Below, piece by piece: positions 12,323 through 50,213 of a stretch of 64,000 nucleotides of DNA. A program made the position numbers and the translations under genes. Under the pieces are notes generated by a model. It searched no databases, was not told where the DNA came from, and saw only the letters and a program-made list of their open reading frames with translations. The DNA lies in the NCBI RefSeq assembly GCF_028688795.1, contig NZ_JAQTXM010000010.1, forward strand, positions 48,040 through 112,039, read 5' to 3'. The DNA comes from Rhodoferax sp. GTDB taxonomy: Bacteria; Pseudomonadota; Gammaproteobacteria; Burkholderiales; Burkholderiaceae_C. Positions within the stretch are counted from its first letter, which is position 1, and every line of letters begins with the position of its first letter.

Positions 12323-12637
12323 TCAGGCGTTGATCAGCTTGACGGAAAAACTCTGGCCCGATGCGATGACGTCCAGCAAGCGGTCGATATTGGGGTGGCT
12401 GCCAGGGTGGGCGCGGGCATCGGTGGTGTGCTCGGCAAATAGTGCCAAGCCTGTCTGAGCCGCCGTCACGTTGATGCTGCCATACCTGGCAGTCAAGGCC
12501 GCGTAGACCGTCAGGGAGCCGGTCGTGCCGAGTTTGTTCTCGATGACGGCCACCACCGTACCTGCTTTGTTGAGCAGTTGCAATGCAGCCAAATGGGTCA
12601 CGGCAGGGAGTTCTTTGAGCGTGTCGGCGAAGGTCAT
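12323..12637 (-). CDS. DUF2322 family protein
   Basis: 104 residues from MTFADTLKEL, a small cytosolic protein matching the DUF2322 pattern as I know it: LPAVTHLAALQLLNKAG, ENKLGTTGSLTVYAALTARYG, then LFAEHTTDARAHPGSHPNID and RLLDVI. Function unknown. GGATC before the ATG is a modest ribosome-binding site. It lies just downstream of the DUF883 gene on the same strand and ahead of clpB. Confidence 0.75.
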   Translation of the reverse strand: MTFADTLKELPAVTHLAALQLLNKAGTVVAVIENKLGTTGSLTVYAALTARYGSINVTAAQTGLALFAEHTTDARAHPGSHPNIDRLLDVIASGQSFSVKLINA

Positions 12638-38585: not shown

Positions 38586-39470
38586 TCAATCTGGGACAAC
38601 TGGCACGTGGAGTTGCTCGGTCAAAAACAGCAACAACTCAGACGGCTCGGCGGACAGCGCCTCACTGGGGTCATGCCGTCCTGCCACAGGCAGCAATTGC
38701 ACCCTGCCCTCAAGGCCAGCGGCCGACAAACGCCGGGCGTCCTCAAACGGTACCAGGTCGTCATCCCACCCATGCACCAACAATACCGGACAACGCACTT
38801 GCCCTATGCTGCGGATGGGCGCAATGTCATCAAACTTGGCACCAATCACGTGTTGCACATAGCGCATCACATACCACCCCACGCCAAAGTAAGGAATGTG
38901 GTGGCTGGCCAACAGGCGGCGCATCACCTCAAAGGGATGCGCAAAGGCACTGATGCTGACCACCGCGCGAATGTCATCGCGCCGCGTGGCGCTCAGCAAG
39001 GCTGCGCCAGCGCCTACCGAATGCCCAATCACAGCCAGCCGACTGGCATCCACCTGTGGCTGTTGGGCCAGCCAATCCAGCCCCGCTTCGATGTCTTGTG
39101 CAAAACGTGGCAACGACGTAAAGGCTTCATCACCACTGGCACCATGGCAACGCGCATCCAGCACAAACACCGCAAAACCGGCACCCGACAAGGGCACCAC
39201 TGAGGGCAGCATCATGCTTGCGTTGGCACCCCAGCCGTGCATCACCAAAACCGCAGGTGCTGGTGATACGCCTGGTGCAGGCACAAACCACGCAAAAAGA
39301 GTTTTGCCATTGGGGCCAGGAATGTAAACCGGGAGCGCTGACAAACCCAGCGACTCGGGCGACATTTGCGCAGCAATCCGAGGCGCCCGCAAACCCTTCA
39401 AAATAAAAAAATGGGCGGCCATTCGTGCCGCCCAAACCCCAACCAAGCTGAAAGTAAACGTCAACAGCAT
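38586..39470 (-). CDS. Alpha/beta hydrolase with N-terminal membrane helix
   Basis: 294 residues. An N-terminal hydrophobic stretch (LLTFTFSLVGVWAARMAAHF) likely anchors it. The hydrolase core shows the oxyanion region VLVMHGWGANASMML, the nucleophile elbow VIGHSVGAGAALLS, the acid in LVHGWDDDLVPFEDARRL and the final His in PVAGRHDPSEA. It is probably an esterase or peptidase-like enzyme; the substrate is unknown. It lies upstream of surE on the same strand with a 99-bp gap. Confidence 0.85.
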   Translation of the reverse strand: MLLTFTFSLVGVWAARMAAHFFILKGLRAPRIAAQMSPESLGLSALPVYIPGPNGKTLFAWFVPAPGVSPAPAVLVMHGWGANASMMLPSVVPLSGAGFAVFVLDARCHGASGDEAFTSLPRFAQDIEAGLDWLAQQPQVDASRLAVIGHSVGAGAALLSATRRDDIRAVVSISAFAHPFEVMRRLLASHHIPYFGVGWYVMRYVQHVIGAKFDDIAPIRSIGQVRCPVLLVHGWDDDLVPFEDARRLSAAGLEGRVQLLPVAGRHDPSEALSAEPSELLLFLTEQLHVPVVPD

Positions 39471-39500: not shown

Positions 39501-40937
39501 TTACTGTGGAATCATGAAGGTTGATTTTTCGTCCAGACGGCCTGGGCTGTCCAAGGACTCAATGACAAAGTGAATCGGGTGCGTGCCAGGCGCGGCGGCT
39601 TCGGGAGGTGCTTGCACACGCAGTGCCATCGTGCCAGCCTGAGTCGATGCAAGGCTGATCGTGTCATCTGAGGTAATCAAAAGCCCAGGCAAACCGCTCA
39701 CTGAAATCTTATAGCGCTGGGATGATTCCGTGGCGTTCATGACCTGAATGCGGTAGACGTTCTCCACCTTGCCAGCATCCACCACGCGAGCCATCACGCC
39801 ACGGTCACGAACCAGATTGGCCTTAAACGGTGTACGCATCGCCAAGCTGACAAAAATGGCCACCACAATCCCAAGCAATATGGTGGTGTAAACCAGTACC
39901 CGAGGCCGCATCACGCGTTTCACGGTCTGCTCTTTGGTCCAGTGGTTGTTCATGGCATTTTCGGTCGAGTACTTGACCAAGCCACGCGGGTAACCCACCT
40001 TGTCCATCACCGTGTCACACACGTCAGCGCAGGCACCGCAGCCAATACATTCGTACTGCAAGCCGTTGCGAATATCAATGCCCGTGGGACAAACTTGCAC
40101 ACATAAACTGCAATCCACACAAGCACCCAGGTTCAGAACGGACAAATCAGCCTTCTTGGAGCGTGGGCCGCGTGGCTCGCCGCGCTCTGCGTCATAGGTC
40201 ACGATCAGGGTGTCTTTGTCGAACATGGCGCTTTGGAAGCGTGCATAAGGGCACATGTGTTTGCAAACCTGCTCACGCATGAAGCCAGCATTGCCGTACG
40301 TGGCGAACGCATAAAAGAAGACCCAGAAAAATTCCCAGGCCGCCAGCTTGCCACCCAAAAATGCATCGGCCATGTCCCGCATCGGCACAAAGTAACCCAC
40401 AAACGTGAAACCGGTCCAGAAAGCAAACGCAATCCACAAAAATTGTTTACCCGCCTTGCGAGCGAACTTCTCTGCAGTCATGGGGCCTTCGTCACGGCGG
40501 ATACGTGCAGAGCGGTCACCTTCGAGCTTCTTTTCTATCCATAAAAAGATTTCGGTGTAAACCGTTTGTGGACAGGCATAGCCACACCACAAGCGTCCCG
40601 CCACGGCCGTAAACAAAAACAGCGACAAAGCAGCAATGATCATCAAACCAGTGAGGTAAATGAAGTCTTGCGGGTACAGCACCAAGCCAAAAATATAGAA
40701 GCGGCGCACGCTCAAATCAAACAGCACCGCCTGACGCTGGCCCCACTCGATCCACGGCAAGCCATAGAAAATGATTTGTGTGACCCACACCATGATCCAG
40801 CGCCAATTGGAGAACACCCCGGACACGCTGCGTGGGTAAATCTTTTGATGCGATGCATACAGAGAGACGAGCTCTTCGTCAGGCGCCGCAACGGCAATGG
40901 GTATTACCTTTTTGGGTTCTTTGTTTTCAGTGGTCAT
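39501..40937 (-). CDS. ccoG: Cytochrome oxidase accessory protein CcoG (RdxA/FixG)
   Basis: 478 residues from MTTENKEPKKVIPIAVAAPD. Inner-membrane protein with N-terminal helices and a two-cluster ferredoxin domain (CVDCSLCVQVCPTGIDIRNG, then CIGCGACADVCDTVMDKVG), then a periplasmic Ig-like C-terminus (IxG region). CcoG reduces copper for cbb3 oxidase assembly in relatives. No ccoNOPQ is present here. It starts 10 bp after the metallo-hydrolase stop codon, downstream of the second sigma-54-like promoter. Confidence 0.93.
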   Translation of the reverse strand: MTTENKEPKKVIPIAVAAPDEELVSLYASHQKIYPRSVSGVFSNWRWIMVWVTQIIFYGLPWIEWGQRQAVLFDLSVRRFYIFGLVLYPQDFIYLTGLMIIAALSLFLFTAVAGRLWCGYACPQTVYTEIFLWIEKKLEGDRSARIRRDEGPMTAEKFARKAGKQFLWIAFAFWTGFTFVGYFVPMRDMADAFLGGKLAAWEFFWVFFYAFATYGNAGFMREQVCKHMCPYARFQSAMFDKDTLIVTYDAERGEPRGPRSKKADLSVLNLGACVDCSLCVQVCPTGIDIRNGLQYECIGCGACADVCDTVMDKVGYPRGLVKYSTENAMNNHWTKEQTVKRVMRPRVLVYTTILLGIVVAIFVSLAMRTPFKANLVRDRGVMARVVDAGKVENVYRIQVMNATESSQRYKISVSGLPGLLITSDDTISLASTQAGTMALRVQAPPEAAAPGTHPIHFVIESLDSPGRLDEKSTFMIPQ

Positions 40938-40947
40938 CAGGGATTCC

Positions 40948-41583
40948 TCAGAAGGTAGAGACAAGTAATTTTTTTTGAGACAGCGCCGCCATGTGCGCCA
41001 GGAACTCATCGCGCGTCAGGCTGGCAAAAAACGGATGCCAGCGGCGCTGCTCCAGTACCGTGCTGACTGCGCGCGCGCGCTGCTCATGGCCGGCGAACAG
41101 CAATGTTTCGTCTGGCAAGGTAAATATCCGTTGGGTCACACTGTCCCACAAGGCTTCAGGTGCTGCTGGATGCGGCTGGTGCGGACAGGCTGCGACCGCC
41201 AGCAGGCCACCGCAAAACAGCCGATCGCGCCACCCGAAACTCAAACAAGTTGGTGTATGGCCCGGCGTGGGCAGAACCCGCACCAACTCACCACCAAACG
41301 GCAACACGGCACCCTCATTCAAGCGTAATGCATCCAACATGTCACCCTGAACAAATGGCGCACCCAAACGTGCCAGCTTTGTGCGCTCATCGGGCTGCAA
41401 GGCATCATGCTGGTGGGTGCGCAACACCCAGCGCAAACGCAGATCGCGCTCGGCCAGTAGCGCCAAGAGGACGGGCATGTCACACGCGTGCGGGTCAACC
41501 AATACTGCTTCACGGGCATCCTGGTCAGCCAGCAAATAAGTCAACTCACCGCTGGCCTCGTTGTGCAAGATACGGAAGTACAC
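40948..41583 (-). CDS. Degenerate metallo-beta-lactamase-fold hydrolase (persulfide-dioxygenase-like)
   Basis: 211 residues from the GTG giving (M)YFRILHNEASGELTYLLADQ. GGAG sits 8 nt before it. The fold resembles glyoxalase-II/ETHE1/Blh proteins (TYLLADQDAREAVLVDP, GHTPTCLSFGWRDRLFCGGL, FAGHEQRA). The metal motif TH-x-H-x-D-H reads THQHDALQP, losing the Asp-His pair, and the usual GD after it reads CGG. Histidines in GHTP and GHEQ remain. So metal binding is altered and activity uncertain. An alternative ATG at 41631 would add 16 residues without family support. Confidence 0.75.
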   Translation of the reverse strand: MYFRILHNEASGELTYLLADQDAREAVLVDPHACDMPVLLALLAERDLRLRWVLRTHQHDALQPDERTKLARLGAPFVQGDMLDALRLNEGAVLPFGGELVRVLPTPGHTPTCLSFGWRDRLFCGGLLAVAACPHQPHPAAPEALWDSVTQRIFTLPDETLLFAGHEQRARAVSTVLEQRRWHPFFASLTRDEFLAHMAALSQKKLLVSTF

Positions 41584-41584
41584 G

Positions 41585-41638
41585 TTAGCGACTCCGCAAC
41601 GGATGCTTGATTTCGACAATTTTGGGGGCATTCATCAT
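41585..41638 (-). CDS. 17-residue leader/remnant ORF before the metallo-hydrolase gene
   Basis: Encodes MMNAPKIVEIKHPLRSR, with an excellent GAGGAAAA ribosome-binding site 6 nt before the first ATG; its TAA lies one base before the GTG of the next gene. Translation could be coupled to that gene by reinitiation. The KIVEIKHPL core resembles the N-terminus of uracil phosphoribosyltransferase (E. coli Upp begins MKIVEVKHPL), so it may be a deletion remnant rather than an evolved leader. A sequencing frameshift joining it to the hydrolase cannot be excluded. Confidence 0.45.
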   Translation of the reverse strand: MMNAPKIVEIKHPLRSR

Positions 41639-41654
41639 GGCAGTTTTCCTCAAT

Positions 41655-41668
41655 TTGATTGTTATCAA
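41655..41668. promoter_or_regulatory. FNR/ANR-type box TTGATTGTTATCAA
   Basis: Perfect match to the FNR consensus TTGAT-N4-ATCAA, just downstream of and touching the -12 part of the sigma-54-like element. Its position could place FNR over the transcription start or allow a second FNR-dependent start near 41620. Confidence 0.6.
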
Positions 41669-41683
41669 TCAAGATCCATGCCA
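41668..41683 (-). promoter_or_regulatory. Sigma-54-like -24/-12 promoter, metallo-hydrolase/ccoG unit
   Basis: Minus-strand TGGCATGGATCTTGAT, differing at two of 16 positions from the element upstream of cydP. It follows TGGCAY-N5-TTG; the -12 dinucleotide is GA rather than the usual GC in both copies. Palindromic sites lie about 100 bp upstream. Confidence 0.6.
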
Positions 41684-41758
41684 AATGTGCAGATAAATCC
41701 TTATTCTAATAAATTCATAGAGTTATAGAAAAATAATGCCCCCTACAGTCTGCCTCCC

Positions 41759-42208
41759 TCAAGCAGAACTGCCAATATTGGCAGCAGTTGACATGCCATG
41801 TTGGCAGTCCTGACTGCTGTCGGTGTTGACCATGTGGTCAGCCATCTGGGTGAACGTGCCAATCAGCCAGGATTGAAAAGCTGCATCAGGCACCTGCTCA
41901 GTGATCGCTTGCGTCATGCACAGCATCCATTCGTCCCGCATGGTTTGGCTGACCGCGTAAGGCGCGTGGCGCATGCGCAGGCGCGGGTGGCCTTTTTTCT
42001 CCATGTAAAGCGGCGGGCCACCCAACCAGCCTGACAAAAATTCAAACAGGCTTTGGCCGCTACCGTCCAGCGTGGCCGGGTGCATTTGGCGCACACCATA
42101 GGCCTCTGGCAACTCATCCATCAACTCATAAAACCGATGCACCAGGCGCTTGATGCCGGCTTCACCACCCAAAACCTCGTAAGGCGCCATTGCTGTCGTT
42201 GAATTCAT
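41759..42208 (-). CDS. Group II truncated haemoglobin
   Basis: 149 residues. PYEVLGGEAGIKRLVHRFYE is the helix A/B start, GHPRLRMRHAPYAV holds the proximal His, and RDEWMLCM carries the Trp of helix G typical of group II. Such globins bind O2 or NO and may detoxify NO or deliver oxygen. The ATG overlaps the SQR-like stop codon by 4 bp, so it is the last gene of the cyd operon. The 3' end of the gene contains the palindromes at 41769-41806. Confidence 0.88.
   Translation of the reverse strand: MNSTTAMAPYEVLGGEAGIKRLVHRFYELMDELPEAYGVRQMHPATLDGSGQSLFEFLSGWLGGPPLYMEKKGHPRLRMRHAPYAVSQTMRDEWMLCMTQAITEQVPDAAFQSWLIGTFTQMADHMVNTDSSQDCQHGMSTAANIGSSA
41769..41806. promoter_or_regulatory. Candidate activator sites for the metallo-hydrolase/ccoG promoter
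   Basis: Two palindromes: CTGCCAATATTGGCAG (perfect, 16 bp, 41769-41784) and TGCCA-TGT-TGGCA (41794-41806). They lie within the end of the globin gene about 100 bp upstream of the -24/-12 element. The TGGCAG and TTGACA words recur in the upstream region of the activator gene at 47.5 kb. Confidence 0.5.
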
Positions 42209-43335
42209 TTGTACTTCCTCAGGTAAGCGCCCTCAAACCCCCGCTTGACCCAATGGAGCAGGCGCGAAGAAGGCAAAATAATTTGACGCTTTTGGTTGCG
42301 AAACACCATAGTGCCATGGTCAATGGCATCAATGATGCAGATCAGTTCAATCTTGAAGGTGGCCTGCGGGGTGCGCCCATTCAAGCCATCGAGCAAGTTG
42401 ACGGCTGCAGCAGCGGCCTGTAGGTCAGCCATGTGCGCCTGCTTGGGCATCCAATCCGGACCCGGAAAACTACCCGAGTCGCCCACGACGTACACATGTG
42501 GCGAGCCCTCAACCCGGCATTGCGCGTCAGCCTTCAACAAGCCACCGGGTGAACGTGCCAGATCGGTCTGATCAAACCACAAATTGCCGGTCATTCCTGG
42601 CATGAAGAGGATCAAATCTGCTGCGAACTCCCCCCCCTCAGTCACCACCCTGTCCGCCTCAAAGCGCACCATCTTGTGGCCCAGATGGGTACGAATGCCC
42701 CGCCGCGCCATCTCAATGAGCAAATGCTTGACAGCTTTGGGCCCCAGGCGGTTACCCGGCTCATTAGAAGGGTTGAAAAATATCAACTCGAACTTGTCGC
42801 GCCGCCCCTCGCGCTTGAGTTGCTCGTCAATACCAAACAAAAACTCAAACATCGGACCACCGCGCACGGCACTGGGCTCATTGGGGTTGCCGGCAAAACC
42901 AATGGCAATCGTGCCGCCCGTCATCGCTTTCAGCCGATCACGAATCTTCTCGGCAGCAGCAATGCCCTCACAAGGCGTGATGGCGTGCTCGATACCGGGC
43001 AACTTTTTGATGAAACGACCACCTGACGCAATCACCAAAGCATCGTTACGCACCTCACCGGCCGTTGAATCGACACATCTGCCCCCTTCACGCAGGCCTG
43101 TCACTTCAGCGGCTACGTGCTTGACACGCATACGGGTAAAAAAATTGGCTAGGGGAACAACCAATTGTTCACGGCGACGCAATCCACTGGGAATCCAGAT
43201 GATGCCCGGCAGGTAATGCAATTCCGCACGTGGCGCGATCAGGGTGATCTCGGCCTGCGCGTCTCGTTGGCGAAGCTCGCGCACAGCCGACAGGGCGCCA
43301 AATCCTGAGCCGATGACGGTAATTTGATAAGGCAT
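42205..43335 (-). CDS. Sulfide:quinone reductase-like FAD flavoprotein
   Basis: 376 residues from MPYQITVIGSGFGALSAVRE. Rossmann FAD site at the N-terminus, second site in ALVIASGGRFIKKLPG, and the FAD-closing motif VYVVGDSGSFPGPDWMPKQA. Cysteines in AITPCEGIAAAEK and IELICIIDAIDHG lie where SQRs keep two of their redox cysteines (my alignment by eye). SQR oxidises sulfide to polysulfide and reduces quinone, which the adjacent bd oxidase could reoxidise. A type II NADH dehydrogenase-like role is the main alternative. Confidence 0.75.
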   Translation of the reverse strand: MPYQITVIGSGFGALSAVRELRQRDAQAEITLIAPRAELHYLPGIIWIPSGLRRREQLVVPLANFFTRMRVKHVAAEVTGLREGGRCVDSTAGEVRNDALVIASGGRFIKKLPGIEHAITPCEGIAAAEKIRDRLKAMTGGTIAIGFAGNPNEPSAVRGGPMFEFLFGIDEQLKREGRRDKFELIFFNPSNEPGNRLGPKAVKHLLIEMARRGIRTHLGHKMVRFEADRVVTEGGEFAADLILFMPGMTGNLWFDQTDLARSPGGLLKADAQCRVEGSPHVYVVGDSGSFPGPDWMPKQAHMADLQAAAAAVNLLDGLNGRTPQATFKIELICIIDAIDHGTMVFRNQKRQIILPSSRLLHWVKRGFEGAYLRKYK

Positions 43336-43404
43336 GTCTCGTTGGTTTCTTTCAATTGATTCATTCATTTCCAATGCGGGACGCCTGTCATCAGCCCTGC
43401 GCAA

Positions 43405-43701
43405 TCATGAAAAACGTAACCAGGCTGCCAAAAGTAGCGCACCCAAGCAAGCCCAGCCCGAAAAAAGCCAGCGCCACAGTACAAACCGCGGCTTAAATCC
43501 CACGCCATTGACCAAGCCCGCACTCATGGCCCAAAAAACAGCCGATGCAAAACCATGGTCCACAACACCGCCCTGCCCCGCAAACATGAACGGGTAAATG
43601 CTGCCACCCAACATGATGGCCAGCGCCACGGCCAGACTTAAAGGCCGCATGGGTGATACAGCGGGTTTTGTTGCAGAGTCTTCAAACACCGCGACACTCA
43701 A
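43405..43701 (-). CDS. ybgE: Cyd operon membrane protein, YbgE-like
   Basis: About 98 residues if started at the TTG overlapping the cydX stop; GTG codons at 43695-43689 or the ATG at 43650 are alternatives. Three hydrophobic helices: SLAVALAIMLGGSIYPFMFA, ASAVFWAMSAGLVNGVGF and LFSGWACLGALLLAAW. The WAMSAGLVNGVGFKPRFVLW segment matches YbgE proteins of cyd operons. Role in oxidase assembly or stability is not well established. Confidence 0.75.
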   Translation of the reverse strand: MSVAVFEDSATKPAVSPMRPLSLAVALAIMLGGSIYPFMFAGQGGVVDHGFASAVFWAMSAGLVNGVGFKPRFVLWRWLFSGWACLGALLLAAWLRFS

Positions 43702-43814
43702 TCGTTCTTGCCACGAGAGTCTTCCCGCGCCTCCTGGGTTTCGCCCCACATGGCGTTCAAAATGGCCAGTAACACCGCAAAACCCACACCCAATACCCAA
43801 GTGAAATACCACAT
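43698..43814 (-). CDS. cydX: Cytochrome bd oxidase small subunit CydX
   Basis: 38 residues, MWYFTWVLGVGFAVLLAILN then AMWGETQEAREDSRGKND. The MWYFTWVLG start and the single helix followed by a charged tail are hallmarks of CydX/CbdX, which stabilises the haems of the bd complex. It is separated from cydB by the Rieske gene, which is unusual. Confidence 0.92.
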   Translation of the reverse strand: MWYFTWVLGVGFAVLLAILNAMWGETQEAREDSRGKND

Positions 43815-43834
43815 GTCAATTCCTTCGTGTGCGG

Positions 43835-44461
43835 TCAAGCCGCGTTGTCTTCACCAATGAGCAACCGGCCCTCAGCCAGATACTGGTGTGGCGGCACCTC
43901 AAGATTGGTGGGTGCCGGTTTGTTTTTGAACACGCGGCCCGCCAAATCAAAGGTGGAACCGTGGCACGGGCAAAAAAATCCGCCTTTCCAATCGGCCCCC
44001 ACACTGGGGTTTGCCGAGCCTGTAGCCACCGCATTGGGCGAACAGCCAAGGTGCGTACAAATGCCCACCGCCACAAAGTACTCGGGTTTGATGGATCGGT
44101 GCGTGTTCTGCGCATAAGCAGGCTGCTGGGATGTGACGACTGACGCCGGATCCACCAACTGGTCGTCCTGCGCGGCCAGACCCGCCAGCATCTCAGGCGT
44201 GCGCCGCATGACCCACACCGGCTCGCCGCGCCACTCGACGGTTTTCACCGCGCCCGGGGCAATGTCTGAAATGTCTGCTTCTACCGCTGCACCAGCGGCC
44301 TTGGCGCGCTCACTGGGTGCAAAACTGGACACCAGCGGCAGGGCCACAGCGGCCGCCGCTACGCCCGCCGCAGCAGCGGTGAGCAGAACCATCTGGCGGC
44401 GCTCAGCGTCATGGTCGCTGGCGTTGGCCGCCAAGGCATCAAAAGTGACAGAAGCAGTCAT
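43835..44461 (-). CDS. Rieske [2Fe-2S] protein (PetA-like) within the cyd operon
   Basis: 208 residues from MTASVTFDALAANASDHDAE. An Arg-Arg-containing N-terminus (ERRQMVLLTAAAAGVAAAAV) gives one membrane helix with Tat-like character. Cluster ligands are CTHLGC and CPCHGS, with the downstream Gly-Pro-type loop (KNKPAPTNLEVPP) of bc1 Rieske proteins. In bc1 it moves electrons from quinol to cytochrome c1. No cytochrome b or c1 gene is in the window. It starts 32 bp after cydB and ends 20 bp before cydX. Confidence 0.92.
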   Translation of the reverse strand: MTASVTFDALAANASDHDAERRQMVLLTAAAAGVAAAAVALPLVSSFAPSERAKAAGAAVEADISDIAPGAVKTVEWRGEPVWVMRRTPEMLAGLAAQDDQLVDPASVVTSQQPAYAQNTHRSIKPEYFVAVGICTHLGCSPNAVATGSANPSVGADWKGGFFCPCHGSTFDLAGRVFKNKPAPTNLEVPPHQYLAEGRLLIGEDNAA

Positions 44462-44493
44462 TAGGAACTCCAAAAAATATCGAAAGGTGCGAC

Positions 44494-45630
44494 TCAATAG
44501 GCCGCATGGTCATGCTCTTGCACATAAGCCGCAGTCACCTTGCCGCGCATCACGCTGTAGGCCCATGAGGTGTAAATAATGATCAAAGGCATAAAAATCA
44601 TGGTGGCCCAGAACATGATGCCCAATGTCAGATGGCTTGATACGCTGTCCCACACGGTCAGGCTGGCTGAGGGCATGCTGCTTGAAGGCATCACAAACGG
44701 GAACATGGATGCACCCGCCGTGCCGATCACCCCCACCACGGCCAGCGATGACGCCACAAAAGCAGTGAGCGTTTTGCGCAGCACCAGCAGCAGCGCTGCG
44801 CTCAGAGCACCCAGCACGCCCAACGCAGGCAAAGCCCACATCAGCGGTTGGTGGGCGTAGTTGGCCATCCAGGCGCCGGCTTCACGCACCACGGTCTTGT
44901 TCAATGGGTCAGGCAGATCAGAAGGGTTAATCACCGAGGTGATGCGGTAGCCGTCTATCGCTTGCAGCCAGACACCCGCCGCCACAAACGCCAGCACCAT
45001 CACCACGGCGGCACCAATAGCACCCTTGATGGCCCGAGCCTGGATGACGCCCTCCGTACGGTGGGCCAAATAGCTGCCACCCTGCAAGGTGATCATGGCG
45101 CTGCTCACCACACCTACCAGCAAGGCAAACGGGTTGAGCAGCTGCCAGAAACTGCCGGTGTAGGTCGACACCAAATAAGCATCAAACTGAAATGGCACAC
45201 CCTGCAGCAAATTGCCAAAAGCCACGCCAAAGATCACGGGTGGCACAAAGCCGCCGATGAACAAGCCCCAGTCCCACACGCTGCGCCAAGTGCTGTTGTG
45301 GATTTTGCTGCGGTAGTCAAACCCCACCGGCCTGAAAAACAGCGCCCACAACACCAGCAGCATGGCCCAGTAAAACCCACTGAATGCCGTGGCATAGACC
45401 AATGGCCAGGCGGCAAAAATGGCACCACCGCCGGTGATGAACCACACCTGGTTGCCGTCCCAGTGCGGTCCCACGGTGTTGATCACCACACGGCGTTCCA
45501 GGTCGCTCTTGCCCACAAAAGGCAGTAAAGTGCCCACGCCCATGTCGTGACCGTCCATGATGGCAAAACCCACCAGCAGCACACCCACCAGCACCCACCA
45601 AATGATTTTTAGCGTTGAATAGTCAAACAT
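44494..45630 (-). CDS. cydB: Cytochrome bd oxidase subunit II
   Basis: 378 residues from MFDYSTLKIIWWVLVGVLLV. The GFAIMDGHDMGVGTLLPFVG segment and FWQLLNPFALLVGVVSSAMI are typical of CydB. It forms a heterodimer with CydA in the inner membrane. It begins 10 bp after cydA. Confidence 0.96.
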   Translation of the reverse strand: MFDYSTLKIIWWVLVGVLLVGFAIMDGHDMGVGTLLPFVGKSDLERRVVINTVGPHWDGNQVWFITGGGAIFAAWPLVYATAFSGFYWAMLLVLWALFFRPVGFDYRSKIHNSTWRSVWDWGLFIGGFVPPVIFGVAFGNLLQGVPFQFDAYLVSTYTGSFWQLLNPFALLVGVVSSAMITLQGGSYLAHRTEGVIQARAIKGAIGAAVVMVLAFVAAGVWLQAIDGYRITSVINPSDLPDPLNKTVVREAGAWMANYAHQPLMWALPALGVLGALSAALLLVLRKTLTAFVASSLAVVGVIGTAGASMFPFVMPSSSMPSASLTVWDSVSSHLTLGIMFWATMIFMPLIIIYTSWAYSVMRGKVTAAYVQEHDHAAY

Positions 45631-45640
45631 GATGTGCCTT

Positions 45641-47215
45641 TCAAGCGTGTGCGGGTACAGAGGATGAGTTGCTCTCGCTTTGATAGCGTCCAGTACCCAG
45701 ACTGCCTGGGCCCATGCGGGCAAACTTCACCATCAAAAACATCTCGACCACCAGCAGCACGGTGTAAAACCCGATAAAGCCCGCCAATGAGCCATACAGG
45801 CTATTGACGCTCAGGGTGGACACTGACATGTGGGTTGGCAGCACACCATAAATCGTCCAGGGCTGGCGGCCGTACTCCGCCACAAACCAGCCCAACTCAC
45901 AGGCAATCCAGGGCGCAGGCAGCATCCACAGCGCGGCTTTCAGCAACCATGGTTTTTGCATGAAGTTTGATTTGAGCGTGCTGTAAAACGCCAGGCCAAA
46001 CAGTAGCAACATGGCAAACCCCAAGCCCACCATGATGCGGAAACCCCAAAACAAGGGCGTGACGCGTGGCACCGTGTCATTCACGGCTTTTTCAATGACC
46101 TCGGGGGTGGCCTGGCGCACATCGACCACGTATTTTTTCAGCAGCAGACCAAAGCCCAAGTCGGCCTTGTGTTGTTCAAATACCTGCTTGGCTACGGCAT
46201 CGCTTCGGTTGGCACGCAAGGCTTCGAGCGCTGTCACCGCCACGATGCCGTTGACGATTCGCTCACGGTTTTTCGCCTTGATGTCGTGAATGCCAGGAAT
46301 TTCTTTGGAGATGGAACGTGTGCCGATCAAGCCCATGACCCAAGGGATTTCAATTTCCCAGTCGTTCTTTTGTTCGGCTTCGTTGATACCCGCCACCAGC
46401 GTCAGCCCAGCCGGTGCCGGCTTGGTTTCCCACATGGCTTCCATGGCGGCCAGCTTGGTTTGCTGCGCTTCACCCACGGTGTAGCCGGATTCGTCACCCA
46501 GGACGATCACGCTCAGTACAGAGGCCAGGCCAAAGGCGGCGGCGACGCGAAAACTACGCTTGGCAAAAGCCACATCGCGCTTTTTCAGCAAATACCAACT
46601 TGAAATCGACATCACAAACATGGCCCCGGTGGTGTAACCAGCGGACACCGTGTGCACAAACTTGGCCTGGGCATCGGGGTTGAACAATACAGCCCAAAAG
46701 TCTGTCATTTCCATGCGCATGGTCTGGTAGCTGAACTCGGCACCCACTGGGTTTTGCATCCAGCCGTTGGCGATCAATATCCACAGCGCGCTCAGGTTGG
46801 TGCCCACCGCCATCAACACCGTCACCAGCAAATGCTGCGGCCGTGACAACCTGTCCCAGCCAAAAAAGAACAGGCCGATCATGGTCGACTCAAGAAAAAA
46901 CGCCATCAGCCCTTCAATGGCCAGCGGTGCCCCAAAAATGTCGCCCACATAATGCGAGTAATACGCCCAGTTGGTTCCAAACTGAAATTCCAGCGTGATG
47001 CCTGTGGTCACGCCCAAGGCAAAGTTGATACCAAACAACTTGCCCCAGAAACGTGTCATGTCTTTCCAGACCACGTTGCCCGTAATCACGTAAACACTCT
47101 CCATGATCACCAGCAACCACACCATGCCAATGGTGAGCGGCACAAACAAAAAGTGGTAGAGCGCAGTGGCCGCAAATTGCAGCCTTGACAAGTCAACCAG
47201 TTGGTCAGAAATCAT
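45641..47215 (-). CDS. cydA: Cytochrome bd oxidase subunit I
   Basis: 524 residues, as E. coli CydA (522). [20 protein letters not shown] carries the haem b595/d ligand histidine; the [20 protein letters not shown] and long Q-loop region ([20 protein letters not shown]) indicate the long-Q-loop type. It oxidises quinol and reduces O2 to water without proton pumping; bd oxidases tolerate sulfide, cyanide and NO better than haem-copper oxidases. It overlaps cydP by 4 bp. Confidence 0.97.
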
Positions 47216-47394
47216 TTGTTATCTCCTTCGATTGACACAGAACCTTGAACCAGCGCCTGCGCGGCCATGCCTGAGGCATCCACCGTGACCCGCTGATCCC
47301 TTACAAAACCCCACCACAGTCCAAACAACAGCACCAGCTTGATGACCAGCACCACGCCCAAGCGCTTCACCAGCAATTGGTCAGCGGGCATCAT
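47212..47394 (-). CDS. cydP: Cytochrome oxidase putative small subunit CydP
   Basis: 60 residues: one membrane helix ([20 protein letters not shown]) followed by [18 protein letters not shown]. The LFGLWW.FVRDQRV pattern matches the small CydP protein encoded before cydAB in several Proteobacteria. First gene of the operon; its ATG is 36 bp from the -12 part of the sigma-54-like promoter. Confidence 0.85.
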
Positions 47395-47429
47395 GACAAG
47401 GCACAGTGCAAAGGGACATAACCAGTGTT

Positions 47430-47445
47430 ATCAATATCCGTGCCA
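47430..47445 (-). promoter_or_regulatory. Sigma-54-like -24/-12 promoter of the cyd operon
   Basis: Minus-strand TGGCACGGATATTGAT: a perfect TGGCAC -24 block, five-base spacer, then TTGAT (consensus TTGCW). It lies 36 bp before cydP and next to a gene for a sigma-54 activator, which supports function. Confidence 0.65.
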
Positions 47446-47526
47446 AACTGAAAATAGAAAAAATTCATTTGATTTCAACACCTTACAAATTTCCACGCAG
47501 TGAATGAAACCGCCACGTCACAGGGT

Positions 47527-47555
47527 TGCTGACATATATGGCAGTGCTGTCAGCA
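47527..47555. promoter_or_regulatory. Inverted repeat, candidate upstream activator site
   Basis: TGCTGACA - 13 nt - TGTCAGCA, perfect 8-bp arms, with an internal TGGCAG-TG-CTGTCA half-match. Its centre is about 104 bp upstream of the cyd -24/-12 element, the usual distance for an enhancer-binding protein, and about 60 bp before the activator gene itself. Confidence 0.6.
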
Positions 47556-47601
47556 TTTTTGGCATACAGTCTGCGACAGCTTCATTTGAAAAAGGTTCAG
47601 C

Positions 47602-49023
47602 TTGAAACCGCTTCCAGAACTCATGTCATTTGTGGAAGGCCTGCCAGAGCCACACATCTTGTTTGACACCCAATACCGCATCCTGGCGGCCAATGCTGCC
47701 TACCGGCGCCAGTTCAGCCCGGATCGCAGCGTGGTCGGGCGCACCTGTTACGAGGTCTCGCACCGCTTCAGCGTGCCATGCGACCAGGCCGGTGAATCCT
47801 GCCCACTGGCGCGCTCGCGTGAATCAGGCCAGCGTGAACGCGTGCTGCACCTGCACCACACGTCCAAAGGTGAGGAATACGTCAACATTGAACTTGCGCC
47901 CCTGCTCGATGCCAGCGGCCAGCAGGCTTTCTACGTTGAGAAAATGGAGTCTATGCGGGTGGCACAAGGACAAGCCACCGCTCAGGGACTGATTGGCCGC
48001 AGCCCGGCGTTTGTGCACATGCTGAGTCTGGTGGCGCGGGTGGCACCCTCCATGGCCACGGTATTGCTGCTGGGCGAATCCGGCACCGGCAAAGAACTGG
48101 TCGCGCGGGCCGTGCACGAGGCCAGCAATCGCGCAAACCGTGCCCTGGTGCCGGTAGATTGTTCAAGCCTGCCTGAGAACCTGTTTGAATCCGAGCTGTT
48201 TGGCCATGAGCGCGGGGCGTTTACCGGCGCCAACACAGCGCGTGGCGGTTTGGTGGAGGCAGCCAGTGGCGGCACGCTGTTTCTGGATGAAGTGGGCGAC
48301 ATCCCGCTCACCATGCAAGTCAAGCTGCTGCGCCTGCTAGAAACCGGCACTTACCGGCGCGTGGGCAGCACCGAGCAACGCCATGCCGACATCCGCGTGG
48401 TGTCAGCCACTCACCGCGACCTGGACCAGATGGTGGCCCAGGGGCGCTTTCGTGAAGACCTGTATTACCGCCTGAGCACGTTCCCGATCCGCCTGCCCGC
48501 GCTGCGTGAGCGCGACAGTGACATTGCCTTGCTAGCCAATGCCCTGCTGGCGCGTGTAGCGCCCCAACGAAAATTGGCACTAAGCGAAGGTGCAGTGCAG
48601 CTGCTGCAAGCGCAAGACTACCCTGGCAATGTGCGTGAACTGCGCAACCTGCTGGAGCGCTCGGCCTTGCTGTGTGACGGCGACACGCTAGAGACCATCC
48701 ACGTGACGCAAGCGCTGCAATCAGGCCGGCGCAATGCGCCAAACATGGCCAACGGTTACGCGCCCGCGGGGTCGAACATTCACGGCGTGGCCTATACCAA
48801 TGCAGCGCCAGCTAACGCGATCATTTCTTCGCTGAAGCCTGGGCAACTGTCGCTGCCCGCCGCCAGCCCTGGAGCCTTGGCGAGTGTGGCGCAGGCCGCG
48901 TTGTTGGACATGGCACTGGCCCACACCGGCAGCCGAGCAGAGCTTGCCGCACAGTTGGGTATCAGCGAGCGTTCGCTATACCGCAAGCTCAAAGCGCTCA
49001 ACTTCAACCGCAATTTAGATTGA
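47602..49023 (+). CDS. fisR: Sigma-54 activator with N-terminal Cys-containing PAS-like domain, FisR-like
   Basis: 473 residues from a TTG start with AAAAGG upstream. Domain order: PAS-like sensor (1-~125), AAA+ domain with Walker A GESGTGKELVARAV and the sigma-54 contact loop ESELFGHERGAFTGA, then a Fis-type HTH at the end (AELAAQLGISERSLYRKLKA). Sensor cysteines are at 49, 60 and 67. FisR of Cupriavidus pinatubonensis, as I recall, senses sulfane sulfur with Cys53, Cys64 and Cys71: identical spacing (11 and 7). The divergent cyd-SQR operon is the likely target. NorR-like NO sensing is less likely since there is no GAF domain. Confidence 0.85.
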   Translation: MKPLPELMSFVEGLPEPHILFDTQYRILAANAAYRRQFSPDRSVVGRTCYEVSHRFSVPCDQAGESCPLARSRESGQRERVLHLHHTSKGEEYVNIELAPLLDASGQQAFYVEKMESMRVAQGQATAQGLIGRSPAFVHMLSLVARVAPSMATVLLLGESGTGKELVARAVHEASNRANRALVPVDCSSLPENLFESELFGHERGAFTGANTARGGLVEAASGGTLFLDEVGDIPLTMQVKLLRLLETGTYRRVGSTEQRHADIRVVSATHRDLDQMVAQGRFREDLYYRLSTFPIRLPALRERDSDIALLANALLARVAPQRKLALSEGAVQLLQAQDYPGNVRELRNLLERSALLCDGDTLETIHVTQALQSGRRNAPNMANGYAPAGSNIHGVAYTNAAPANAIISSLKPGQLSLPAASPGALASVAQAALLDMALAHTGSRAELAAQLGISERSLYRKLKALNFNRNLD

Positions 49024-49117: not shown

Positions 49118-49465
49118 TCAAGCCGATGCAATGACATCAAAAGCGGCCAACGCCTCAGCTACCAGCATCAGCCCCGGGCCACCGCCCATGTAAACGCACA
49201 CGCCCATCGCTTCTTCAAGTTCGGCGCGGGTGCAGCCCAAGCGGTGCAGCGCCTTGATGTGAAACGCGATACAGCCCGAGCAGTGCTGCGTGATGCCAAT
49301 GGAAAGGGCAATCAATTCCTTGTGTTTGGCGCTGACCACGCCCTCAGCCATGGCAGCCTTGGCCATTTGGCCAAAACCCAGCATGGTTTCACTTTGTGAT
49401 TTGCGAAAAGGCCCCAGGTTTTCATTGATGCTTTTCATCAAACCGATGGAATCAAACGTGCTCAT
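49118..49465 (-). CDS. Carboxymuconolactone decarboxylase (AhpD-like) family protein
   Basis: 115 residues from MSTFDSIGLMKSINENLGPF. The core ELIALSIGITQHCSGCIAFH keeps the AhpD pattern C-x-x-C-x3-H of thiol-active members, so a redox or peroxidase-related role is more likely than ring decarboxylation. It ends with EEAMGVCVYMGGGPGLMLVA. It lies 22 bp after the unknown periplasmic-protein gene on the same strand and may share its transcript. Confidence 0.88.
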   Translation of the reverse strand: MSTFDSIGLMKSINENLGPFRKSQSETMLGFGQMAKAAMAEGVVSAKHKELIALSIGITQHCSGCIAFHIKALHRLGCTRAELEEAMGVCVYMGGGPGLMLVAEALAAFDVIASA

Positions 49466-49487
49466 AGCGCTCCTTGTGTGGAAAAAA

Positions 49488-50213
49488 TTAACCAAATTTG
49501 GCAAACAACTTGCTGTACGGCCCCTTCAGCTTAGACGCAGCCTCCTTGGCGGCGGCCGTGTCCTGGTTCAATAAAGCCGCTTCCAGGTTGGCAACCGACT
49601 GGATCACCGCCTTAAGCAGGCTCGTGAACTCCTCATTTGACTGCAACTCCTTTGAGGACTGCTCATCAAGTTGGCGCGCCAGATAACTCAAAGTGCCTGC
49701 CTGCGCCGTCAAAAGCTGCAGCCCCTTGGGCTTGGCCAGGGTGTCGCTACCATGGACCATGATGACCTCCATCTGGCCGTGGTACGCGTTCATGTGGTCA
49801 CTGAACACCACCACATTGTTACGTTGGCGCATGTCAGCCATGACCTCACGGGCGTGTTCCAGGGTGTTGTGGGCATCGGCAAGTTGGTTGGCATTGACCT
49901 CTGCCAAAGCCTTGGTGTAGACCTTGGCGACCTCGGCCACCGAGGCTGCAAACGCCTGATCACGATCGTAGGGAGCCGCTGGTTTGGCACCAAACTGGGT
50001 GCTGAGTTTGTCCCAGGCTTGTTGCGCCTGGGTCACCGCCTGCTGGGCTTCCGGCTGTGACTTGCCGTTGGTCTTGTACAAGGCCATGCGGTATGGCCCA
50101 TTGGCGACCTGCATGGCGTCTGTCACGGGGTCAGCCGCGTGGGCCAACGCACCAAACGACAGCGCGAGTGCCAAACTGATGGTTTTCAAAGGGCGGTTGA
50201 TGCGTGTGGTCAT
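49488..50213 (-). CDS. Periplasmic helical protein of unknown function
   Basis: 241 residues from MTTRINRPLKTISLALALSF. A signal peptide cleaves after GALAHA|ADP. The mature part is almost all helix with many Gln/Ala/Lys residues (QPEAQQAVTQAQQAWDKLST, ADAHNTLEHAREVMADMRQR). A His/Met-rich stretch, FSDHMNAYHGQMEVIMVHG, could bind metal. I do not recognise the family. It is divergent from the TlpA-like gene and adjacent to the AhpD-like gene, which suggests a periplasmic redox context. Confidence 0.65.
   Translation of the reverse strand: MTTRINRPLKTISLALALSFGALAHAADPVTDAMQVANGPYRMALYKTNGKSQPEAQQAVTQAQQAWDKLSTQFGAKPAAPYDRDQAFAASVAEVAKVYTKALAEVNANQLADAHNTLEHAREVMADMRQRNNVVVFSDHMNAYHGQMEVIMVHGSDTLAKPKGLQLLTAQAGTLSYLARQLDEQSSKELQSNEEFTSLLKAVIQSVANLEAALLNQDTAAAKEAASKLKGPYSKLFAKFG

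What the first reader, a model, noticed from the sequence alone, without database searches (positions are those of the whole stretch)
39501..49023. Putative sulfide/polysulfide-responsive cytochrome bd regulon under a FisR-like sigma-54 activator
Seen: the activator at 47602-49023 has sensor cysteines at 49, 60 and 67 and is divergent from cydP-cydA-cydB-Rieske-cydX-ybgE, which continues into an SQR-like flavoprotein and a truncated globin; a persulfide-dioxygenase-like fold gene and ccoG follow. Known: FisR of Cupriavidus uses three cysteines with spacing 11 and 7 to sense sulfane sulfur and activates sqr/pdo; bd oxidases resist sulfide. Inferred: sulfide arriving from outside induces a resistant oxidase that takes electrons from sulfide through quinone, with the globin handling NO or O2. 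I know of no described operon with this whole set.
Basis: partly seen in the sequence, partly recalled or inferred. Interest (0 to 1): 0.85.

Follow-up and report, generated by a model that had tools for sequence, protein, structure and literature searches.

The report
Sulfur-sensing switch for cytochrome bd
A bacterium of the Burkholderiales group carries a FisR-type sulfur-sensing activator beside two matching DNA switches, which very probably turn on a sulfide-tolerant respiratory enzyme together with a spare respiratory subunit and altered relatives of two sulfur enzymes.

Summary
The activator (47602-49023) belongs to the FisR family: 105 of 106 activators examined carry the C-x4-H-x5-C-x6-C motif. 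New here: the cluster holds two copies of one switch, a palindrome (CTGCCA-N4-TGKCAG) 83-85 bp upstream of a sigma-54 -24/-12 site. One lies before cydP, the other before the MBL gene and ccoG. A relaxed form of this pair occurs exactly twice in the 5-Mb genome, at these two places; controls gave none. In a relative, copies flank one FisR and face a PDO-SQR set and cydP-cydA.

The metabolic half is weakened. The 'SQR' has Arg for a catalytic Cys (37 of 37 rows). The 'PDO' lost an iron-ligand Asp (34 of 36) and gained an invariant Cys. A canonical SQR lies elsewhere in the genome. The Rieske is a separate paralogue of the bc1 subunit, found mostly beside FisR or cyd genes.

Best reading: a FisR paralogue senses sulfane sulfur and remodels respiration (bd oxidase, alternative Rieske, CcoG). 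Signal and direct activation are inferred. A sulfide-responsive repressor of bd genes (YgaV) is already reported in E. coli. New variant of a known kind.

The parts
47602..49023 (+). FisR-family sigma-54 activator; sensor Cys codons 47746-47748, 47779-47781, 47800-47802
   Evidence: (PAS_4, Sigma54_activat, HTH_8); motif in 105 of 106 activators examined
47529..47544 (-). UAS 1, CTGCCATATATGTCAG
   Evidence: dyad enriched across 98 intergenic regions
47430..47445 (-). sigma-54-type promoter 1, TGGCACG-N4-TTGAT, 35 nt before the cydP ATG
47212..47394 (-). cydP
   Evidence: NCBIfam NF045611 above cut-off
45641..47215 (-). cydA
   Evidence: PF01654
44494..45633 (-). cydB
   Evidence: TIGR00203 above cut-off
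43835..44461 (-). Rieske protein, paralogue of the bc1 subunit PetA
   Evidence: TIGR01416 above cut-off; separate group in a tree
43698..43808 (-). cydX
   Evidence: TIGR02106 above cut-off
43405..43659 (-). ybgE
   Evidence: PF09600, (NCBIfam equivalog below its cut-off)
42205..43344 (-). SQR-fold flavoprotein with C125/R161/C276/C336
41759..42208 (-). truncated globin
   Evidence: PF01152
41769..41784 (-). UAS 2, CTGCCAATATTGGCAG (over the end of the globin gene); a further TGCCA-N3-TGGCA lies at about 41794-41806
41668..41683 (-). sigma-54-type promoter 2, TGGCATG-N4-TTGAT, 36 nt before the upstream MBL ATG
40948..41631 (-). PDO-like MBL protein without the iron-ligand Asp (start may lie about 48 nt inside)
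39501..40937 (-). ccoG (start placed by comparison with L274; the longest ORF begins at 41009)
   Evidence: PF11614, PF13746
39412..39434 (-). terminator-like hairpin with T run after ccoG
   Evidence: 21 such sites in the stretch, 17.0 expected, so a single site is weak evidence; this one has 7 G-C pairs and a run of 7 T

Best explanation
A FisR-family activator, in a subfamily apart from the FisR-like protein beside the PDO/SQR genes of C. metallidurans, controls two sigma-54 operons. Unit 1 is cydP-cydA-cydB-Rieske-cydX-ybgE-SQR-like-globin; unit 2 is MBL-ccoG. Shown by sequence: the sensor motif, two matching UAS/sigma-54 modules, and recurrence of such modules before cyd, Rieske, ccoG and PDO-like genes in relatives. 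Inferred: sulfane sulfur (from sulfide or polysulfide) links Cys49 and Cys60 as in Cupriavidus FisR; the activator then binds the CTGCCA-N4-TGKCAG UAS and opens sigma-54 promoters. Inferred physiology: when sulfide or persulfide harms haem-copper respiration, the cell makes the sulfide-resistant bd oxidase, a spare Rieske subunit for bc1, and CcoG, which helps copper delivery to cbb3 oxidase (recalled role). The SQR-like and PDO-like proteins are derived family members with altered active sites, so their chemistry is probably not classical sulfide or GSSH oxidation; persulfide handling or quinone reduction with another donor is a guess.
For: Motif in 105 of 106 activators examined, in every gene context seen. 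UAS 47529-47544 and 41769-41784, 83 and 85 bp upstream of a sigma-54 site. Relaxed UAS+sigma-54 pattern: 2 hits in the whole 4.99-Mb genome, both here, 0 in both controls. Strict pattern in 150 family genomes: 6 hits in 4 genomes, of which 2 own, 1 before MBL-ccoG in a same-genus genome about 240 kb from its activator, 2 flanking one FisR in G372 and facing a PDO-like gene and cydP-cydA, 1 in G358 with no recognised gene. 59 of 98 divergent regions hold the pair, 0.2 expected. 106 pair hits against 0 in reversed controls over 3.57 Mb of partly overlapping loci; next gene cydP 22, cydA 16, Rieske 16, ccoG 8, MBL 7, others named 11, unnamed gene 15, no gene 11. A relaxed pair pattern lies on both sides of the C. 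metallidurans CH34 activator, one copy facing PDO/SQR-like genes. A Pseudoalteromonas activator (about 42% identical) is divergent from annotated cydP, cydB, cydX and YbgE. A. baumannii raises cydAB with sulfide (PMC7315123, passages).
Against: No expression data. The inducer is transferred from Cupriavidus FisR. The A. baumannii FisR responds to sulfide without these cysteines (PMC7315123), so the Cys-sulfur link is not proven for the whole family. The activator lies in a clade apart from the one with the C. metallidurans protein (FastTree). The UAS consensus was derived from the same regions that were then counted, so searches are partly circular. 39 of 98 divergent regions show no pair at the set thresholds. 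The UAS pattern alone, with two mismatches, is at chance level in the window (21 found, 22.4 expected). The -12 element here is TTGA, not TTGC.
Confidence: 0.75

Rival explanations
1. The activator responds to NO or nitrosative stress; bd oxidase, truncated globin and spare Rieske are an NO-defence set.
For: Truncated globin in the operon; NO-tolerant bd oxidase in an abstract listed. In some relatives a multihaem cytochrome (Pfam Cytochrome_cB; I read it as OTR-type from recall) sits in the operon.
Against: The PAS domain carries the FisR cysteine motif in 105 of 106 activators examined. Neighbours in relatives include PDO-like, SQR-like, rhodanese and DUF302 genes. The same UAS type serves PDO/SQR-like genes.
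Confidence: 0.08
2. The conserved C-x4-H-x5-C-x6-C set binds a metal or Fe-S cluster, and the activator senses redox state, O2 or a metal rather than sulfane sulfur.
For: The His is as conserved as the cysteines: all 101 motifs scored fit C[YHF]xxSHxxxxPC[DHN]xxGExC. CcoG and Rieske are metal-linked proteins.
Against: A tetrasulfide between the equivalent Cys53 and Cys64 was reported for Cupriavidus FisR (PMC9495516, passage).
Confidence: 0.12
3. Neighbourhood only: cyd is driven by other regulators and the activator acts elsewhere.
For: In several relatives the activator lies next to other genes.
Against: The only two UAS/sigma-54 pairs found in this genome are in this cluster.
Confidence: 0.04

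Closest known systems
FisR - pdo - sqr of Cupriavidus (C. pinatubonensis, Li et al. 2017, not read; C. metallidurans CH34 locus examined here as L326, unannotated, genes named by similarity)
   Same: sigma-54 activator with PAS Cys triad, divergent operon, sigma-54 promoter, same UAS type
   Different: targets here are bd oxidase, Rieske paralogue, ccoG and altered SQR/PDO relatives; the activator is in another clade
Acinetobacter baumannii FisR and sulfide-induced cydAB (PMC7315123, passages)
   Same: the sulfide response includes FisR targets and cydAB
   Different: there FisR drives pdo1-sqr-tauE, cydAB is a separate locus, and FisR lacks the sensor cysteines; no FisR control of cydAB is stated in the passages seen
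YgaV of Escherichia coli (PMC11858517, passage)
   Same: sulfide-responsive control of cytochrome bd oxidase genes
   Different: a repressor under sulfide-free conditions, not a sigma-54 activator
Exchangeable Rieske subunits of Rubrivivax gelatinosus bc1 (Ouchane 2005, not read; cited in PMC4013037 and PMC6256036, passages seen)
   Same: second Rieske gene outside the bc1 cluster
   Different: whether that second gene is the FisR-linked type was not tested
Type I SQR of Acidithiobacillus / Aquifex
   Different: catalytic Cys160 equivalent is Arg
ETHE1-type persulfide dioxygenase
   Same: fold (TM-score about 0.75)
   Different: iron-ligand Asp replaced by Gly, new Cys140

Membership tests
FisR-type sulfane-sulfur activators | PAS + sigma-54 AAA+ + Fis HTH | tested here: met
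   GAFTGA is in the translation
FisR-type sulfane-sulfur activators | three sensor Cys in the PAS domain, first two 11 apart | tested here: met
   Cys53-Cys64 reported in PMC9495516, three conserved Cys in PMC9774590; the position of the third Cys of FisR is known to me only from recall and the finding
FisR-type sulfane-sulfur activators | UAS and sigma-54 promoter type shared with PDO/SQR-linked activators | tested here: met
FisR-type sulfane-sulfur activators | same clade as the C. metallidurans activator | tested here: not met
   separate clades of 49 rows (99) and 15 rows (100) in a FastTree of 103 rows: a subfamily of its own. Further cyd-linked and PDO/SQR-linked activators lie outside both
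FisR-type sulfane-sulfur activators | activation by sulfane sulfur | not testable with these tools
   needs experiment
cytochrome bd oxidase (CydABX) | CydA, CydB and CydX families | tested here: met
   (TIGR00203 and TIGR02106 above cut-off; the CydA NCBIfam equivalogs are below their cut-offs, Pfam is above)
cytochrome bd oxidase (CydABX) | haem ligands of CydA | not tested
   no call was made for this
sulfide:quinone oxidoreductase | SQR fold | tested here: met
sulfide:quinone oxidoreductase | redox-active Cys pair (Cys160/Cys356 in A. ferrooxidans numbering; roles recalled) | tested here: not met
   Arg161 in 37 of 37 rows and 24 of 24; Cys336 kept; canonical SQR rows have Cys in 7 of 7 and 18 of 18
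persulfide dioxygenase | 2-His-1-Asp iron triad (ETHE1 numbering recalled) | tested here: not met
   H73 in 36 of 36 and H125 in 35 of 36; Asp replaced by Gly in 34 of 36
bc1 Rieske subunit | cluster ligand motifs CTHLGC and CxCH[GA]S | tested here: met
   32 of 32 loci, window included
bc1 Rieske subunit | encoded with cytochrome b and c1 | tested here: not met
   in the window its neighbours are cydB and cydX; the genome's other Rieske gene stands before genes that I read as cytochrome b and c1

The most novel reading that the evidence does not exclude
A dedicated FisR paralogue runs a sulfur-triggered respiratory swap: it replaces the haem-copper oxidase by bd, exchanges the Rieske subunit of bc1 for a sulfide-adapted isoform, renews cbb3 through CcoG, and uses an Arg-for-Cys SQR and an Asp-less PDO with new cysteines for a so far undescribed persulfide or quinone chemistry.
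Probability: 0.25. Interest if true: 0.8.

Novelty: new variant of a known kind. Interest (0 to 1): 0.6.

Why it matters
Sulfide induction of bd oxidase is reported, and in E. coli a sulfide-responsive repressor (YgaV) acts on bd genes (PMC11858517, passage). A sulfur-sensing activator of cyd with defined DNA sites was not found in the papers searched here. The cluster also ties a spare Rieske subunit to sulfur stress and points to two conserved enzyme families with altered active sites. Each claim can be tested in harmless Burkholderiales.

Tried and rejected
Rejected: one single operon (a second promoter was found). Rejected: a classical SQR-PDO pathway from these two genes. The alignment of Cys125 of the SQR-like protein with canonical Cys128 is ambiguous: MAFFT pairs them, A1 and HMMER do not. 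The first gene calls by ORF length were poor in GC-rich DNA and were replaced by a codon-usage caller; its gene starts and small genes are approximate. Four of 110 loci gave no activator gene (L087, L100, L178, L198). Eight of 106 had no divergent gene close by and were left out of the promoter counts. Five were left out of the activator tree for length (L093, L177, L179, L193, L207). The 37 SQR-like rows of A1 were picked from 79 called plus the window; of the 36 MBL rows of A2, 20 are from loci, 15 were picked from 120 listed proteins, one is the window. MBL hits at 24-31% identity are treated as PDO-type or other MBL proteins, not as orthologues. The UAS match at 12477 has no sigma-54 site at the distance tested. 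In the Rieske tree bc1 rows come only from the loci held (5 distinct), not from all 28 genomes. Literature: searches (FisR, cyd, sulfide, Rieske terms; Rieske) searched an open-access library; only the top rows were listed, and none of those seen describes FisR control of cyd or of a Rieske gene. Seen of papers: titles and abstract starts; passages of PMC7315123, PMC8148161, PMC9495516, PMC5322542, PMC12170894, PMC6256036, PMC4013037, PMC11858517 and PMC9774590. Li et al. 2017 and Ouchane et al. 2005 were not read.
Full report
Check of the observation. The window is part of a 4,988,259-base genome; the closest named relatives found are Comamonadaceae such as Rhodoferax sp.. The activator at 47602-49023 has PAS_4, a sigma-54 AAA+ domain and a Fis HTH, and Cys at 49, 60 and 67. 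ccoG probably begins near 40937, judging by a relative.

Is the activator FisR? Published FisR of Cupriavidus forms a tetrasulfide between Cys53 and Cys64, spacing 11 (PMC9495516, passage), and has three conserved Cys (PMC9774590, passage). In 110 loci examined, an activator gene was called in 106, window included. The motif was found in 101 within the stretch scanned, and 4 of the 5 misses have it further along a long open frame; only L228 lacks it. The C. metallidurans CH34 activator next to PDO- and SQR-like genes is 50% identical. In a FastTree of 103 rows (five loci left out) the window protein lies in a 49-row clade (support 99; neighbours cyd 22, Rieske/ccoG 16, other 9, pdo/sqr 2). The CH34 protein lies in a 15-row clade (100; pdo/sqr 10, other 4, both 1). 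Further cyd-linked and pdo/sqr-linked rows lie outside both. So it is a FisR-family member in a subfamily of its own. No second activator of this kind was found in this genome; the other 12 hits match only residues 118-406.

The two switches. The region between the activator and cydP holds CTGCCATATATGTCAG (47529-47544) and TGGCACGGATATTGAT (47430-47445). The region around the globin stop and before the MBL gene holds CTGCCAATATTGGCAG (41769-41784) and TGGCATGGATCTTGAT (41668-41683). The gaps are 83 and 85 bp. By itself the UAS pattern with two mismatches is at chance level in the window (21 found, 22.4 expected), and 3 places match it exactly. The pair is what counts: a relaxed pair pattern occurs twice in the genome, both here, with 0 in both control readings. 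With a strict pattern in 150 family genomes there were 6 hits in 4 genomes: two own; one before MBL-ccoG (74% and 87% identical) in a same-genus genome, about 240 kb from its activator; two flanking one FisR in G372, facing a PDO-like gene (after a 64-aa ORF) and cydP-cydA; one in G358 with no recognised gene. Over 98 divergent regions, 88 have a sigma-54 site (9.0 expected), 67 a UAS (6.5 expected) and 59 the pair (0.2 expected). The UAS was defined on these regions, so these counts are partly circular; the genome-wide scans and the G414 and G372 cases are the more independent checks. In 3.57 Mb of loci, partly overlapping, 106 pair hits were found against 0 in reversed controls. The next gene was cydP 22, cydA 16, Rieske 16, ccoG 8, MBL 7, other named 11, unnamed 15, none 11.

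Conservation of the cluster. The activator has matches at E <= 1e-85 in 60 of 300 order genomes and 57 of 299 family genomes; the SQR-like protein in 17 of 300 and 32 of 299 at 1e-60. The activator is divergent from cydA in 36 of 121 and 12 of 80 records. All of Rieske, SQR-like, globin and MBL are also present in 5 (window included) and 6 of these; three of the 6 repeat regions of the 5, so 8 are distinct. Named examples are L274 (Rhodoferax sp.), L262 (Polaromonas sp.), L256 (Hydrogenophaga taeniospiralis), L279 (Rubrivivax sp.) and L304 (Methylibium sp.). Relatives add DUF302, rhodanese, SLAC1-family, SCO1, Nitro_FeMo-Co and multihaem cytochrome genes. One record places a PDO-like gene directly before cydA (L226). 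In a gammaproteobacterial plasmid record the divergent genes are annotated cydP, cydB, cydX and YbgE.

Mechanism. Shown: genes, motifs, modules, conservation. Inferred: sulfane sulfur as signal, action at the UAS, and physiological benefit. Literature: sulfide raises cydAB in A. baumannii, where FisR drives pdo1-sqr-tauE and lacks the cysteines (PMC7315123, passages); in E. coli the sulfide-responsive YgaV represses bd genes without sulfide (PMC11858517, passage). I found no paper describing FisR control of cyd in the searches listed.

Verdict. The regulatory claim is strong on sequence, the sulfide-oxidation claim weak. New variant of a known kind. Interest 0.60, lowered from a draft value of 0.62 after the YgaV passage was seen.

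Noticed in passing
47430-47445, 41668-41683; family-wide: The -12 element of these sigma-54 sites is TTGA or TTGT in the window's family (A 26, T 6, C 4, G 1 of 37 strong sites) but TTGC in most sites of other families (C 25, A 9, T 2 of 36). A lineage shift in sigma-54 recognition is possible.
   Followed up: partly
43835-44461: The cyd-operon Rieske belongs to a paralogue group found mostly beside FisR or cyd genes.
   Followed up: yes
L078, L080, L089, L091: FisR relatives with the same Cys motif sit beside PsrABC-like, ferredoxin-ccoG and multihaem-cytochrome/cytochrome b561 genes: a wider FisR regulon (names mostly from my reading of the sequences).
   Followed up: partly
L260, L267, L270 and others: SQR-like gene near a canonical-type SQR and an efflux-pump-like set, without FisR in the locus (names partly from my reading).
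   Followed up: no
49118-49504: CMD-family (AhpD-like) gene on the other side of the activator; CMD relatives also lie near SQR clusters.
   Followed up: no
38586-39470: Alpha/beta-hydrolase-like gene after ccoG (my reading), recurring near other FisR loci; a terminator-like hairpin lies near its start.
   Followed up: no
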